Positions 14,556 to 20,773 of a stretch of DNA of 64,000 bases are shown here, piece by piece. The notes beneath the pieces are model-generated. The model made no database searches. It was not told where the DNA came from and was given only the letters and a program-made list of their open reading frames with translations. The first letter of the stretch is position 1. Each line of letters begins with the position of its first letter. A program made the translations under genes and the position numbers. Source of the DNA: Synechococcus sp. RS9909 (lineage in GTDB: Bacteria > Cyanobacteriota > Cyanobacteriia > PCC-6307 > Cyanobiaceae); assembly GCF_014279595.1 (NCBI RefSeq), contig NZ_CP047943.1, positions 2,416,422 to 2,480,421 on the forward strand. Reading direction: 5' to 3'.

Positions 14556-15806
14556 CTACGTCGTGTAATCGGCGTTGATGCGGATGTATTGATCCGAGAG
14601 GTCACAACCCCAGGCCTGGCCCTGGCCGGGGCCATCACCCACCCGTAAACGGATTCGCACGCAATCGTCCTGGAGGTAGGCCCCTGCCGCGCGCTCGCGC
14701 AGATACCGGGACGCGGCAGGGCGGTCAAAAACCAGGGGCTGTCCAGCGGCCATTAATTGATGCTCGCCAAGCCAGAGCGCCACGGTCTCGGGATCAAAGT
14801 GCACCCCGGCGCGGCCAGCGGCGGCAATGATCCGGCCCCAGTTGGGATCGCGACCATGGATGGCGGTTTTCACCAACGACGACCCACACACGGTGCGAGC
14901 GATCCGCTGCGCCTCCGCTTCCGACGCCGCACCGTCCACCCGCACCTCAATCAGACAGGTGGCCCCTTCACCATCCCGGGCAATGGCACGGGCCAGATGC
15001 TGAGCTACCAGGGTCACACCCTCTTCCAGGGCCGCCAGCTGATCCGGCGGCAAGGGAGCTCCGGCGGCAAACGCCAGAAACGCATCATTGGTGCTCGTGT
15101 CACCGTCCACAGTGATCGCATTGAACGATCGCTGCACCGCCCGCTGCACCAGCGCCTGCCACTGCTCCGCGGGCACTGCAGCATCACAGGTGAGAGTGCC
15201 GAGCATCGTGGCCATATCGGGATGAATCATTCCCGACCCCTTGGCCATACCACCGATGCGCACACGCCGGCCGCCGAGATTGGCCTCCAGGGCGATCTGC
15301 TTGTCGATCAGATCGGTGGTGAGAATTGCCGTGGCAGCTGCCGCGCCACCGTCGCGGCTCAGGGCCGACACCAGAGGGTCGATCCCCGCCAACAACGTGT
15401 CCATCGGGATCGGAACACCAATCACACCGGTGGAGCAGATCAGCACCTCCTCTGCCGTCAGCCCCAGACGATCCGCCAGCGCCTGGGTGGCCCGCTGGCT
15501 ATCAATCAGGCCACGGTCACCGGTGCAGGCATTCGCCTGACCGGAATTGGTGAGCACCGCCCGCACCTGGCCACCACGGCGCTGCAACCGTTCGATGCAG
15601 AGGTCCACGCAGGCCGCCCGCACCAGCGAGGTGGTGAAGGTGCCGGCACACACCGCTCCCTCCGGTGCCAACAGCAGGGAGAGATCAGGTTTCCCGGAAG
15701 CCTTCAGGCCGGCGGTGATGCCTGAGGCCTGAAACCCATCCGGAGCCGTGAGACCTCCCGATACGGCAACCCAAGTGGGCGAGAGAGATCCGCTGTTGGC
15801 CGCCAT
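14556..15806 (-). CDS. argJ: Bifunctional glutamate N-acetyltransferase / amino-acid acetyltransferase
   Basis: ArgJ moves the acetyl group from N-acetylornithine to glutamate in the cyclic arginine pathway. It is made as a precursor that cleaves itself into two subunits. The cleavage site can be seen in GSGMIHPDMATML, between Ala and Thr, where Thr becomes the nucleophile. Other family blocks are LTNSGQANACTG, STGVIGVPI, DGDTSTNDAF, GRDPNWGRI and a C-terminal INADYTT. I take the ATG at 15806 (416 residues). An ATG at 15851 would overlap the divergent coaE start. It may also make acetylglutamate from acetyl-CoA. Confidence 0.95.
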   Translation of the reverse strand: MAANSGSLSPTWVAVSGGLTAPDGFQASGITAGLKASGKPDLSLLLAPEGAVCAGTFTTSLVRAACVDLCIERLQRRGGQVRAVLTNSGQANACTGDRGLIDSQRATQALADRLGLTAEEVLICSTGVIGVPIPMDTLLAGIDPLVSALSRDGGAAAATAILTTDLIDKQIALEANLGGRRVRIGGMAKGSGMIHPDMATMLGTLTCDAAVPAEQWQALVQRAVQRSFNAITVDGDTSTNDAFLAFAAGAPLPPDQLAALEEGVTLVAQHLARAIARDGEGATCLIEVRVDGAASEAEAQRIARTVCGSSLVKTAIHGRDPNWGRIIAAAGRAGVHFDPETVALWLGEHQLMAAGQPLVFDRPAASRYLRERAAGAYLQDDCVRIRLRVGDGPGQGQAWGCDLSDQYIRINADYTT

Positions 15807-15849
15807 CACGCCTGCAGGGGAGACACTGGATCCATCCTCACCCCGCGCC

Positions 15850-16446
15850 ATGCCCAGCCAACGCCGGATTGGCCTCACCGGAGGGATTGCCAGCGGCAAG
15901 AGCAGCGTCGGTCGCTGGCTGGCGCAACGGGGCATTCCCGTGCTCGATGCCGATCAGGTCGCGCGGGAGGTTCTGGCAGCAGGCAGCGAAGCCACTCGGC
16001 AAGTGATCGCCCATTTCGGCGATCGGGTGCGCGCCAAGGGCGCCACAGGGGAGGAGGCTTGTCTCGATCGCGCAGCCCTGGGCCGGATCGTGTTCAACGA
16101 CCCGAACGAACGACGCTGGCTCGAGCAGCTGGTGCACCCTCGCGTGCGTGATCACTTCGATGCGGAACTGCTCCGGCTCCAGCGGGAGCCGATCGTGGTG
16201 CTGATGATTCCGCTGCTGTTTGAAGCAGGCCTCGAACACCTCTGCACAGAAATCTGGGTTGTGACCTGCTCAGAGCAGCAGCAACAGGAACGACTCATCG
16301 CCCGAGACGGCCTGACGGTCGAGGACGCCCGGCTCAGGATCGCCGCCCAGATGCCCCTCGCCAGCAAAGGCGCCAGAGCAGACCTGGTGATTGACAACGC
16401 TGAACGGCCGGAAGCGTGGACTGTGCTGGTCGAATCACAGCTCTGA
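15850..16446 (+). CDS. coaE: Dephospho-CoA kinase
   Basis: CoaE performs the last step of coenzyme A synthesis, phosphorylating the 3'-hydroxyl of dephospho-CoA. The ATG at 15850 gives 198 residues starting MPSQRRIGLTGGIASGKSSV, with the P-loop GGIASGKS at about residues 11-18. DADQVAREVL, HPRVRDHF and VVLMIPLLFEAGLE follow, as in the family. The longer upstream frame overlaps argJ and has no family similarity. It is divergent from argJ. Confidence 0.96.
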   Translation: MPSQRRIGLTGGIASGKSSVGRWLAQRGIPVLDADQVAREVLAAGSEATRQVIAHFGDRVRAKGATGEEACLDRAALGRIVFNDPNERRWLEQLVHPRVRDHFDAELLRLQREPIVVLMIPLLFEAGLEHLCTEIWVVTCSEQQQQERLIARDGLTVEDARLRIAAQMPLASKGARADLVIDNAERPEAWTVLVESQL

Positions 16447-16609: not shown

Positions 16610-16846
16610 ATGCTCCGCTCCCTCTCCCTTCTCTCTGCCCTCGCTCTCGGCTCCACCGCACTGGTGATGATCGAGATCGGCGCAGGCGAGGTGGATTTCA
16701 CGGGCGATGGATCTGTTGAACCAGGTTTCAGCGATCCAGACGTAACCCCTGCACCCGAGATGAGCAGCGGCGATCAACTCGGCTCTGCCGTTGGCCAACA
16801 CCTCGGCAAATTGCTTGGGCAAGGCATCGCCGATCTTTTCCGCTGA
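16610..16846 (+). CDS. Small exported hypothetical protein
   Basis: A 78-residue frame opens with a plausible signal peptide (MLRSLSLLSALALGSTALVM). A short acidic linker and an amphipathic C-terminal helix (QLGSAVGQHLGKLLGQGIADLF) follow. No family is recognised and no strong ribosome site is visible, so it may or may not be expressed. It precedes a larger exported protein on the same strand. A minus-strand frame across the same bases looks less convincing because it lacks any such organisation. Confidence 0.4.
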   Translation: MLRSLSLLSALALGSTALVMIEIGAGEVDFTGDGSVEPGFSDPDVTPAPEMSSGDQLGSAVGQHLGKLLGQGIADLFR

Positions 16847-16939: not shown

Positions 16940-18655
16940 ATGTCTCTGCTCAACCAGGCCCGTACAGCAACCAGCGCTATCACGGCCACCGCACTGATTG
17001 CCGCCGCCAGCCTGCAAGCCCCCTCAGCCTCCGCCAACAACGGAGTGAACTGCGAAAACGGACGCTCCCTCGGCCAGTTTTTGATCAAGTCAAAGCTGAA
17101 TGACCGCTATGTGAGCGGCGGCCATCACAACAATGCCCTGAAAGCCAAACTCCTTGACCAACCAGCCCCAGGAAGTGAAGGCGTCTTCGAACTCTTTGAT
17201 GTCAGCGACCTTCCTGGCGCCGCCAGAAACACGTTTGCCCTGCGCAGCGTAAAAAAACCCAATGAGTGGTGGCGCGTAAAGAACAACAATGAAACCGTGC
17301 TGCTCGACTCCTACCAATGCAAGTCAAACCGGGAAAGTACCACTTTCATCGCAACGGGACTAGGCGGGCAGATGGCACTGCAATCCCGCAAAAATAACAA
17401 GTGGCTCAAGGTCAACAATGATGACAGGCTGAAAGCCTCCGTCGACAATCCTAACGGACGCGATAAAAGCATCTTTTTATTCAGCCAACTCAATCAACCT
17501 GCGCCACCCAACCCTCAGCCACAACCTGACCCCCAACCCGAGCAGCCTGTCGACCTCAACGGCTGGTGGCGCGGCAATGACAACAGGCTCTTTAACATCA
17601 GCGTTAATGGCAGCAATGTCACCATCAAGGGCTTCCAAAGCTCAGGACAACCGCTGAACATCTCCACTGGGATTGTGAATGATGCCCTGATCAGTGGAAA
17701 CTGGAACAACTACTGTTATGGAGCACGGGGTTCGTTTGCATTCAGCCTCCGCAACGGAGCACTTGTCAAAGTCGGTGGCAACCTGTCAACCCAAACCCTG
17801 ATTCGCATCAACACCCCCGCCAACGTCAATCTCTCAGCCCAACCGAGCTGCGGCACACCCCAACCACCTCAAGACCAGGCACCCCCGAACCTGAATGGCT
17901 GGTGGAAAGGCAATAACAGTGGTTATTACAACATCCTCCAAACCCAGGAAATCCCAGGACAGAACAACTTCCGAATGCGCGGCTACACGAATTCCGGACA
18001 ACTTCTGAACACCTTGATTGGACGGACCAGGGGCAACAGAATCACCGGCCGGTGGACCAACGCCTGTGATCAGCGAACCGGCAACATCACACTGGAAGTC
18101 CGCAATGGGGAGTTGGTGAAGGTCAGCGGATCAGCCACCGCGAACACGCGCTGGTCAACCACTAACAACCCGCCCCGCACCCTTCGCAACAACTGCCCTC
18201 AGGGCAATCCTGAACCAAGCACTCAGGCGAGCAAACAGGTACTCAGCCTCACGAAAACGGTTTACATTGTTGATCACGATAGCCTCTCAAGAAACGAAAC
18301 CGGACAACGCAAGTTGTCTAAAACGCTGCAACTTGAGCGGCCGGAAAGAAACGGCACACGCTTCAGCGCTTTCTTCCCATCCTCCAACAAAACCCGCTTT
18401 TGTGTTGATAATGAGGTGAGATCCGACGACTGGGACAAGGTTTGGATTGACAGCAATGGCAATGCCAACCTTGGTGTCGAAGTGAAGCTCTACGAGGGAA
18501 CCAGCTGCAGAGGTCGATTGATCGGCACTTATGTGTACCGCAAGATCCTGACCGTTGCCCCGGGGCAGACCGATCGGTATGAAGTTCCCCTCCCCACCAA
18601 TGAAGGCAGCTCGGTGCGGGTGACCTACACCCTCTCCAACCGCACCGCACGCTGA
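16940..18655 (+). CDS. Exported multidomain protein with two copies of an unrecognised domain
   Basis: No family could be named for this 571-residue protein. A signal peptide covers about residues 1-33 (ending APSASA). Residues 41-183 look like a beta-trefoil-type fold (FLIKSKLNDRYVSG, ALRSVKKPNEWWRVKN and MALQSRKNNKWLKVNN are repeated strands). A Pro-rich linker (186-204) leads to two homologous units. Unit 1 (205-305) opens DLNGWWRGNDNRLFNI and ends RNGALVKVGG; unit 2 (318-420) opens NLNGWWKGNNSGYYNI and ends RNGELVKVSG. A distinct C-terminal domain follows (435-571). Paired cysteines in each unit suit an exported protein. Rich in Asn and AT-richer than neighbours, it may be transferred. 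A role in surface or carbohydrate binding is only a guess. Confidence 0.8.
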   Translation: MSLLNQARTATSAITATALIAAASLQAPSASANNGVNCENGRSLGQFLIKSKLNDRYVSGGHHNNALKAKLLDQPAPGSEGVFELFDVSDLPGAARNTFALRSVKKPNEWWRVKNNNETVLLDSYQCKSNRESTTFIATGLGGQMALQSRKNNKWLKVNNDDRLKASVDNPNGRDKSIFLFSQLNQPAPPNPQPQPDPQPEQPVDLNGWWRGNDNRLFNISVNGSNVTIKGFQSSGQPLNISTGIVNDALISGNWNNYCYGARGSFAFSLRNGALVKVGGNLSTQTLIRINTPANVNLSAQPSCGTPQPPQDQAPPNLNGWWKGNNSGYYNILQTQEIPGQNNFRMRGYTNSGQLLNTLIGRTRGNRITGRWTNACDQRTGNITLEVRNGELVKVSGSATANTRWSTTNNPPRTLRNNCPQGNPEPSTQASKQVLSLTKTVYIVDHDSLSRNETGQRKLSKTLQLERPERNGTRFSAFFPSSNKTRFCVDNEVRSDDWDKVWIDSNGNANLGVEVKLYEGTSCRGRLIGTYVYRKILTVAPGQTDRYEVPLPTNEGSSVRVTYTLSNRTAR

Positions 18656-18734: not shown

Positions 18735-19265
18735 ATGAACCACCTGCTCCACCTGAGCGCCGTCGGCTTGAGCGCCTTCAGCCTGGCCGCCGCCAGCATC
18801 AGCTTCGGCAACGCTGCCCAAGCACAGGCGATCACGTTCCGCTGTTATGACCGTGCCTCGGGAGCCCTTGTTGCTGTCAGCGCAATCGACCTGAGCTCAT
18901 CACAAGTGAGCTGCACGCCGGGCGAAGCTCCGGCACCGGGCAACGCATCAGTCCCTGACAGCAGCCCGAATGATCCCCTCGCCGCACGACGCAGCATCAA
19001 CCTGGCTCGCGGCACGGCGGTCAAGTTGAACGGAGGCTTGAACGCCTATCGACCGGCGAGCTGCATGTTTGCTGGAGCAACGGACAATCCATGCCTCACG
19101 ATTGAGGATGGAGCCTTTCTGTTCAACATCCCCGGAGGCCCTCCCGGCTGGGAACAGACTGGTGACCCGCCCAGTGTGCAGACGATCTTGAAAATCGCCG
19201 CTGATGGACGCTCAGTGCTTGATGAGGTCTACAACGGCCCGCCGCGAGCGGCAGGGCCACGTTGA
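18735..19265 (+). CDS. Exported hypothetical protein
   Basis: This 176-residue product starts with a clear signal peptide (hydrophobic to about residue 27, ending NAAQAQA). Four cysteines in the mature part (FRCYDR, QVSCTPG, ASCMFAG, NPCLTIEDG) could form two disulphides. The rest is rich in Ala, Pro, Gly and Asn with no domain I recognise. It follows the 571-residue exported protein after 79 bases on the same strand, and the pair may have arrived together. It converges on gatB. Confidence 0.65.
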   Translation: MNHLLHLSAVGLSAFSLAAASISFGNAAQAQAITFRCYDRASGALVAVSAIDLSSSQVSCTPGEAPAPGNASVPDSSPNDPLAARRSINLARGTAVKLNGGLNAYRPASCMFAGATDNPCLTIEDGAFLFNIPGGPPGWEQTGDPPSVQTILKIAADGRSVLDEVYNGPPRAAGPR

Positions 19266-19285: not shown

Positions 19286-20773
19286 TCAGCCCCCCTTCAG
19301 CTTCTGACTGAGGATCTGATTGGCCAGCTTTGGATCGGCCTTACCGCCAGTCTGCTTCATCAGCTGACCGACGAAGAAGCCCTGGAGCTTGGTCTTGCCG
19401 CCCCGGAAGGCTTCCACCTCCTCAGGGTGAGCAGCCAGGAGCTCATCAACGATCGCGGTGATCGCAGCAGGGTCGCTGATCATGCCCAGGCCACGCTCAT
19501 CGACGATCTGGGACGGGGAGCCACCCTTCTCGAGCAACTCAGGCAGGATGTCCTTGGCGATCTTGCCGCTGATCTTGCCGCTATCGATCAGCTTCACCAT
19601 CTCCGCCAGCTGTTCGGGGCGGAAGGGCAGCGAGGCGTAATTGAGGCGGTTGCTGTTCACATAAGCGGCGATATCGCCGGTGATCCAGTTCGCCGCCAAC
19701 TTGGCATCAGCGCCGGCTGCCACCACCGCTTCGAAATACTCAGCCATCGGCCGCTCGTCGGTGAGCACCCGGGCGTCGTACTGCGACAGCCCCAGGGTGT
19801 CTGCGTAGCGATGACGCTTGGCCGCAGGAAGCTCCGGCAACTCGGCACGCCAGGCTTCGCGCTGCTCGACACTCACCTCAATCGGACCGAGATCGGGATC
19901 GGGGAAATAGCGGTAGTCGCTGGCCCCCTCCTTGCTGCGCATGCTCTTGGTGAGCTGCTTGCCCTCATCCCAGAGGCGGGTTTCCTGAACGATCGGTTCG
20001 CCGCTCTCGTAGGCCTTGATCTGACGCTGGATCTCGTAGTCGCAAGCCTTCTGGATCGCCGAGAAGGAGTTCATGTTCTTGATCTCCACCTTCGTGCCGA
20101 AGGGCGCATCAGGCCCGCGGCGCACGGAGATGTTCACGTCGCAACGCAGGGATCCCTCCTGCATGTTGCCGTCGCTCACGCCCAGATAACGCATGATCCG
20201 GCGGATCTCCGAGGCGTATTCCGCTGCCTCCCGGCCGGTGCGCAGATCGGGCTTGCTCACGATCTCAGCCAGAGCCACGCCGGCGCGGTTGTAATCCACC
20301 AGCGAGTGGGTGGAGCCCGCCAGGCGATCGCTGCCGGCGTGCACCAACTTGCCGGCATCTTCCTCCATGTGCAGACGTTCGATACCGATGCGCTTGAGAT
20401 AGGTGTCCTTGCCTTTTTCGGCCACCTCAACCTCGATCCAGCCGTCTTCGGCAATCGGTTCGTCGTATTGGGAGATCTGGTAGTTCTTGGGCAGATCGGG
20501 ATAGAAATACTGCTTGCGGTCGAATTTGCTGTGCTCGGCGATGTTGAGGTTGAGCGCCATCGCCGCCTTCACCGCATACTCGAGCACCTTCTGATTCAGC
20601 ACCGGCAGCGTGCCTGGCAAGCCGCACACCACCGGATCGATGTGGGTGTTGGGGTCGTCACCAAAGGCCGTGGAGGCACCCGTGAAGATCTTGCTCTCGG
20701 TGCCCAGCTGCACGTGGGTCTCCAGACCGATCACGGCTTCCCATGCGCCCGTTCCAGCCCCGTTGACAGCCAT
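19286..20773 (-). CDS. gatB: Aspartyl/glutamyl-tRNA amidotransferase subunit B
   Basis: GatB is the kinase/amidation subunit of GatCAB, which converts Glu-tRNA(Gln) and Asp-tRNA(Asn) to the amidated forms. The 495 residues begin with WEAVIGLETHVQLGTESKIF and contain DPVVCGLPGTLPVLN, YFYPDLPKNYQISQYD, the HMEEDAGKLVH site and DYNRAGVALAEIVS. SDGNMQEGSLRCDVNIS and KNMNSFSAIQKA follow, as does a C-terminal YqeY-like tRNA-binding region. Neither gatA nor gatC is in the window, as is usual for scattered cyanobacterial gat genes. Confidence 0.98.
   Translation of the reverse strand: MAVNGAGTGAWEAVIGLETHVQLGTESKIFTGASTAFGDDPNTHIDPVVCGLPGTLPVLNQKVLEYAVKAAMALNLNIAEHSKFDRKQYFYPDLPKNYQISQYDEPIAEDGWIEVEVAEKGKDTYLKRIGIERLHMEEDAGKLVHAGSDRLAGSTHSLVDYNRAGVALAEIVSKPDLRTGREAAEYASEIRRIMRYLGVSDGNMQEGSLRCDVNISVRRGPDAPFGTKVEIKNMNSFSAIQKACDYEIQRQIKAYESGEPIVQETRLWDEGKQLTKSMRSKEGASDYRYFPDPDLGPIEVSVEQREAWRAELPELPAAKRHRYADTLGLSQYDARVLTDERPMAEYFEAVVAAGADAKLAANWITGDIAAYVNSNRLNYASLPFRPEQLAEMVKLIDSGKISGKIAKDILPELLEKGGSPSQIVDERGLGMISDPAAITAIVDELLAAHPEEVEAFRGGKTKLQGFFVGQLMKQTGGKADPKLANQILSQKLKGG

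What the first reader, a model, noticed from the sequence alone, without database searches (positions are those of the whole stretch)
16940..18655. Exported protein with a duplicated domain of unknown family
Two units of about 100 residues, opening LNGWW(R/K)GN and closing RNG(A/E)LVKV(G/S)G, share spacing, a central SGQ.LN and paired cysteines. They stand between a trefoil-like N-terminal region and an unrelated C-terminal domain. The design resembles multi-module surface or carbohydrate-binding proteins, but I can place none of the modules firmly. Asn-rich, AT-richer composition hints at transfer.
Basis: partly seen in the sequence, partly recalled or inferred. Interest (0 to 1): 0.55.

Follow-up and report, generated by a model that had tools for sequence, protein, structure and literature searches.

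The report
Exported Synechococcus protein with swappable modules
A cyanobacterial gene encodes an exported protein built from a trefoil-like domain, two small beta-barrels and an orphan domain; one barrel has been swapped wholesale relative to its closest relative, and the gene sits in a chromosome slot where related strains carry different exported proteins.

Summary
Window 16940-18655 (+) encodes 571 aa: signal peptide, a fascin/ricin-like trefoil candidate, Pro-rich linkers, two homologous ~100-residue units, and an orphan C-terminal domain. Each of the four modules has exactly two cysteines.

The units match no Pfam, NCBIfam or PHROG family, but are not isolated. They are divergent copies of a small cyanobacterial domain (GxW...NDGG type). 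AlphaFold2 predicts an eight-stranded meander barrel (pLDDT 82.5), closest in solved structures to avidin/streptavidin and designed barrels (Z about 9). There is no sequence-level link to avidins, so this is fold likeness, not membership.

New here: against the G181 ortholog, trefoil, unit 2 and C-terminus are 85-92% identical, but unit 1 is only 36% (nt 52%, dS 1.1 against 0.18-0.30). Unit 1 was replaced as a module. The gene lies between coaE and gatB, an interval that varies from 28 to 7477 bp in 28 genomes and usually holds exported or signalling genes. Unit-bearing genes are rare (10 of 400 family genomes); 9 of those 10 sit in this slot or between its degraded copies.

Binding at the cell surface is inferred, not shown. 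Recent foreign transfer of the whole gene is not supported.

The parts
16940..18655 (+). whole gene, 571 aa exported four-module protein
   Evidence: 80% identical full-length ortholog in G181
16940..17035 (+). Sec-type signal peptide, residues 1-32 (ASA|NNG)
   Evidence: sequence reading; ortholog keeps the same motif
17039..17497 (+). trefoil-like domain, residues 34-186, Cys 38/127
   Evidence: Pfam Fascin E 6e-4, below its gathering score; 5 of 10 relatives match Fascin at E <= 1, best 6e-5; fascin chains E 0.005 by profile; AF2 confidence low here
17498..17551 (+). proline-rich linker
   Evidence: sequence reading
17552..17851 (+). unit 1, predicted eight-stranded barrel, Cys 259/304; swapped relative to G181
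17891..18196 (+). unit 2, predicted eight-stranded barrel, Cys 376/419
18212..18652 (+). orphan C-terminal domain, Cys 488/523
   Evidence: found only in G000 and G181: 2 of 31 genus genomes; 1 of 292 phylum genomes, G000 itself
18735..19265 (+). P2, neighbouring small exported protein of a family recurrent in this slot
16610..16846 (+). P3, probably an internally deleted relative of the 139-aa G181 exported protein
15748..16446 (+). coaE, left boundary of the variable slot (ORF as listed; true start probably further in)
   Evidence: gene name by recognition of the sequence, not from a library search
19286..20773 (-). gatB, right boundary of the variable slot
   Evidence: gene name by recognition of the sequence, not from a library search

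Best explanation
This is an exported, probably disulfide-stabilised, multi-module binding protein of a Synechococcus-type picocyanobacterium. The trefoil-like domain and the two calycin/avidin-type barrels most likely act as separate binding heads joined by Pro-rich linkers, on or outside the cell envelope. The gene is one of many alternative occupants of a flexible slot between the housekeeping genes coaE and gatB. It changes by exchange of whole modules: unit 1 has been replaced while trefoil, unit 2 and C-terminus stayed. Shown here: export signal (by sequence), module homology, slot variability, the unit-1 discontinuity, and a direct-repeat insertion in a relative. Predicted: the barrel and trefoil folds. 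Inferred: disulfides, ligand binding, surface location, and homologous recombination through conserved flanks and linkers as the means of exchange.
For: Unit repeat far above shuffles, recovered by leave-one-out profile. Units predicted as eight-stranded barrels matching streptavidin/avidin chains at Z 8.2-9.7, rmsd 2.3-3.1 over 83-94 residues among the best rows. Two Cys in each of four modules. Window against G181: trefoil 0.92 aa, unit 1 0.36, unit 2 0.85, C-terminus 0.90; dS 0.25, 1.12, 0.30, 0.18; blocks 181-210 and 331-360 are 0.93, blocks 211-300 are 0.27-0.40. G181 unit 1 is closest to the unit of G009, a different genus (66%). The coaE-gatB interval runs from 28 to 7477 bp in 28 intervals measured. 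In G253 a 475-bp direct repeat (88.6%) of P2/gatB ends brackets an extra unit-bearing gene. In G289 and G271 the cassette sits away from the true locus with broken coaE and gatB pieces. Of the 10 of 400 family genomes with units, 7 have them in the slot, 2 between remnants of it, 1 elsewhere.
Against: No ligand, location or expression has been tested. The full-length model is poor (mean pLDDT 50.7); only the units are usable. Foldseek gave no match at E <= 0.001 for either model, and the tool notes that Z 7-8 is typical noise, so Z about 9 is modest. Few sequences were in the alignments (2 and 3 rows). I did not measure a set of control intergenic intervals, so 'unusually variable' rests on the range itself. 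The donor of either unit 1 was not found.
Confidence: 0.55

Rival explanations
1. Unit 1 diverged in place under strong diversifying selection (for example from phage or grazer pressure), not by replacement.
For: Exported binding modules are common targets of such selection (general knowledge); the change is confined to one module.
Against: Synonymous divergence of unit 1 (dS 1.12) is four to six times that of the adjoining modules (0.18-0.30), and G181 unit 1 is nearer to G009's unit (66%) than to the window's (36%).
Confidence: 0.12
2. The whole gene is a recent foreign acquisition.
For: GC 0.55 against 0.64; Asn-rich; patchy occurrence (10 of 300 family genomes); the C-terminal domain is an orphan.
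Against: Orthologous place in G181; GC3 and codon index at the edge of the native range; no match in phage, plasmid or viral collections.
Confidence: 0.15
3. The units are true avidin relatives that bind biotin or a similar small vitamin.
For: Best structural matches include streptavidin, avidin, bradavidin, hoefavidin and agroavidin; the G-x-W opening resembles avidins (compare).
Against: Pfam Avidin does not match in G000; profile comparison with three avidins gives probability 1.4%; avidins fill the list partly because so many are solved.
Confidence: 0.06
4. It is a modular secreted effector or toxin-like protein: conserved trefoil head, variable C-terminal part, used against neighbours or grazers.
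For: Trefoil head joined to different C-terminal parts in different strains; orphan C-terminal domain.
Against: No catalytic family detected; PADLOC gave nothing for it; no obvious immunity gene identified.
Confidence: 0.1

Closest known systems
Avidin/streptavidin fold (calycin-type meander barrel)
   Same: Predicted eight-stranded up-and-down barrel, similar size, G-x-W opening
   Different: No sequence similarity by Pfam PF01382 or profile comparison; window units carry one Cys pair each; biotin residues not assessed
Fascin-like / ricin-B-like beta-trefoil
   Same: N-terminal region gives sub-threshold Fascin and RicinB_lectin_2 matches and three similar motifs of the type LxLxS..N..W (my reading)
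   Different: Below the Pfam gathering score for the window protein; low model confidence; exported bacterial protein
GxW-NDGG small exported proteins of filamentous cyanobacteria (L026-L030, unnamed family; 'filamentous' is partly recalled, plasmid hits are Calothrix and Nostoc)
   Same: Profile of these proteins finds both window units and the search with the units finds them
   Different: Single-domain proteins in open frames of 145-173 aa; they lack the conserved Cys pair of the window units
Synechococcus genomic island module Syn_GI122 (Dore et al. 2020, PMC7522525; passages read)
   Same: Described as holding uncharacterised cell surface proteins and cAMP cyclase genes across almost all lineages, which fits the alternative occupants seen here

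Membership tests
Avidin family (PF01382) | Sequence match to the Avidin profile | tested here: not met
   No match in G000 at E <= 0.001; Pfam scans of the units list no Avidin; hhalign with three avidins probability 1.4%
Avidin family (PF01382) | Eight-stranded antiparallel meander barrel | tested here: met
   Predicted only: eight strands, pLDDT 82.5; Z 8.2-9.0 to avidins/streptavidins
Avidin family (PF01382) | Biotin-binding residues and biotin binding | not tested
   No residue-level structural alignment was available; needs an assay
Fascin / ricin-B beta-trefoil | Profile match above the curated cut-off | tested here: not met
   Window: Fascin 20.3 bits against 23.1; RicinB_lectin_2 13.9 against 25.6
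Fascin / ricin-B beta-trefoil | Threefold beta-trefoil fold | tested here: inconclusive
   Three repeat-like motifs in A9, but AF2 gives mostly pLDDT under 50 there
Cyanobacterial GxW-NDGG domain (unnamed) | Homology of the units by profile | tested here: met
   Profile of L026-L030 finds all 11 units searched, W_u2 at 19.2 and W_u1 at 13.8 bits; the A1 search finds those proteins in 5 genomes outside the family

The most novel reading that the evidence does not exclude
coaE-gatB is a cassette exchange site in Synechococcus: homologous ends of the two housekeeping genes let strains swap exported-protein genes, and within those genes single barrel modules are exchanged as units, giving strains a changing set of extracellular binding heads.
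Probability: 0.35. Interest if true: 0.6.

Novelty: new variant of a known kind. Interest (0 to 1): 0.45.

Why it matters
Modular surface proteins and variable islands are known, but here a module swap is visible at domain resolution between two otherwise near-identical genes, in a slot with simple housekeeping borders and no tRNA in the eight pieces examined. That makes a mechanism of surface-protein diversification in an abundant marine photosynthesiser directly testable. It also puts a predicted fold on a barrel domain that the curated family libraries searched here do not name.

Tried and rejected
Family and structure searches of the whole protein gave nothing secure. PDB profile search with the units gave only E >= 0.15. 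The C-terminal domain gave a sub-threshold AMPK1_CBM match (E 0.003, 18.2 bits against 26.8) and weak PDB hits; I do not use it. Foldseek on the full model returned mostly beta-propeller enzymes with TM about 0.08, meaningless. The BFVD search had no E <= 0.001, and neither did Foldseek on the unit model (nitrobindin, fatty-acid-binding proteins and designed barrels on top, E >= 0.1). Viral, phage and plasmid searches found no relative of the protein. No tRNA in the eight examined pieces. The first genome-contig scan found nothing and the second found one locus, L036. One of the 10 phylum genomes (G483, E 1e-4, a Gly-rich protein) I treat as a false match. Paper searches listed nothing that by title or abstract start describes this protein or a coaE-gatB island; only listings were seen, except passages of PMC7522525.

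Full report
CHECK. The ORF is as described. It encodes 571 aa with a Sec-like signal peptide, a 153-residue region, a Pro-rich linker, unit 1, a short linker, unit 2, and a 147-residue C-terminal domain. The units are truly homologous: Smith-Waterman 163 against a shuffled mean of 33 and maximum of 67 in 1000, and a profile built without unit 1 recovers it at 67.3 bits. All four modules have exactly two cysteines.

RELATIVES. With the full protein, 10 of 300 family genomes match; with the unit profile, 10 of 400; with a profile of the trefoil-type relatives, 12 of 400, one of them (G156) with stops inside. All three counts include the window's own genome. One relative, in G181, is full length at 80%. 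Others combine the trefoil with one or two units, with a GxW-type barrel, or with unrelated parts; G009 has a unit without the trefoil. In the phylum, 10 of 386 genomes match the unit profile. Five of these lie outside the family and are short exported-looking proteins; one more (G483) I judge false. The curated libraries do not name the unit (Pfam; NCBIfam; PHROGs). The organism is a Synechococcus-type picocyanobacterium by inference: L036, from a record titled uncultured Synechococcus, has the contig length of G635:C13, a genome of the window's genus.

FOLD. AlphaFold2 on the whole protein is poor overall (mean pLDDT 50.7) but gives eight strands in each unit, with block means mostly 59-82. 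Unit 2 alone, with unit 1 and L036 as alignment, gives pLDDT 82.5, pTM 0.74 and eight strands. VIA-align ranks de novo barrels (Z up to 9.3) and avidins/streptavidins (Z 8.2-9.0, rmsd 2.3-3.1) highest for the unit model, and streptavidin at Z 9.7 for unit 1 in the full model. Foldseek has no significant hit, and Z 7-8 is described as common, so the fold claim is moderate. There is no sequence link to avidins. The trefoil assignment rests on sub-threshold profile matches and is not confirmed by the model.

MODULE SWAP. Comparing the window with G181 along the gene: trefoil 141 of 153 identical, unit 1 36 of 99, unit 2 88 of 103, C-terminus 133 of 147. Nucleotide identities are 0.93, 0.52, 0.88 and 0.92; dS is 0.25, 1.12, 0.30 and 0.18. 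The step is sharp at both edges. G181's unit 1 is closest to the G009 unit (66%); the window's unit 1 has no relative above 37% among the 11 units compared. High synonymous divergence confined to one module points to replacement, not selection on point changes. In G271 two tandem unit copies are identical over 249 of 249 bases, but the second runs into a contig end, so an assembly effect is possible.

THE SLOT. gatB was found in 28 of 31 genus genomes. I measured the coaE-gatB interval in 28 genomes: 26 of the genus plus G009 and G044 of the family. G169 and G632 were left out because a contig end cuts them; of the three genus genomes without a gatB match none was measured; G283, whose gatB is cut by a contig end, was measured to its gatB stub. 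The range is 28 to 7477 bp. Near empty (at most 207 bp): 4 (G629, G239, G193, G283). P2-type protein only: 6 (G260, G204, G034, G231, G075, G213). FecR-like protein plus CHASE2-cyclase: 5 (G635, G277, G289, G271, G265), named from Pfam on G635 and by likeness for the rest. Trefoil and/or unit proteins: 8 (G000, G181, G253, G246, G222, G141, G009, G044). Other content: 5 (G101, G633, G156, G123, G295). Of the 10 unit-bearing family genomes, 7 have the units here, 2 (G289, G271) have them elsewhere between broken coaE and gatB pieces (in G271 spread over two contigs), and 1 (G635) elsewhere with no such pieces seen. In G253 a 475-bp direct repeat made of P2 and gatB ends (88.6%) brackets an additional unit-bearing gene, as single-crossover integration or duplication would leave. 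These traces fit movement by homology with the flanking genes, but do not prove it. No control intervals were measured.

LITERATURE. PMC7522525 (Dore et al. 2020; passages read) describes a Synechococcus island module, Syn_GI122, with uncharacterised cell surface proteins and cAMP cyclases in almost all lineages. It may include this slot; coaE and gatB do not occur in its main text and its tables could not be opened. So the existence of a variable island may already be on record; I found no print describing the protein, the barrel fold or the module swap in the searches listed.

VERDICT. Function is inferred to be extracellular binding; ligand and role are unknown.

Noticed in passing
16610-16846: The 78-aa P3 ORF looks like an internally deleted version of the 139-aa G181 protein (L013 8249-8665): signal start joined to the C-terminal tail.
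   Followed up: partly
L105 9024-13181 (G123): Five tandem, evenly spaced (870 bp) copies of a 226-aa Q/P-rich exported-looking protein in the same coaE-gatB slot, next to an RTX-repeat protein.
   Followed up: no
L088 10014-12640 and equivalent places: A FecR-like protein plus CHASE2-adenylate/guanylate cyclase pair occupies the slot in several relatives; in G101 a CHASE2 cyclase sits beside a Crp-type regulator.
   Followed up: partly
L108 9887-10139 (G231 C1): A gatB fragment (residues 12-95, 70-87% identical) lies on another contig, away from the full gatB.
   Followed up: no
L104 7509-7625 (G101): A second small coaE fragment (residues 19-57 of the marker used, 51%) inside the 7.5-kb slot.
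   Followed up: no
L092 12858-13790 (G633): A low-GC slot (0.415) with a 311-aa protein of no clear Pfam family, sulfotransferase-like by eye only.
   Followed up: no
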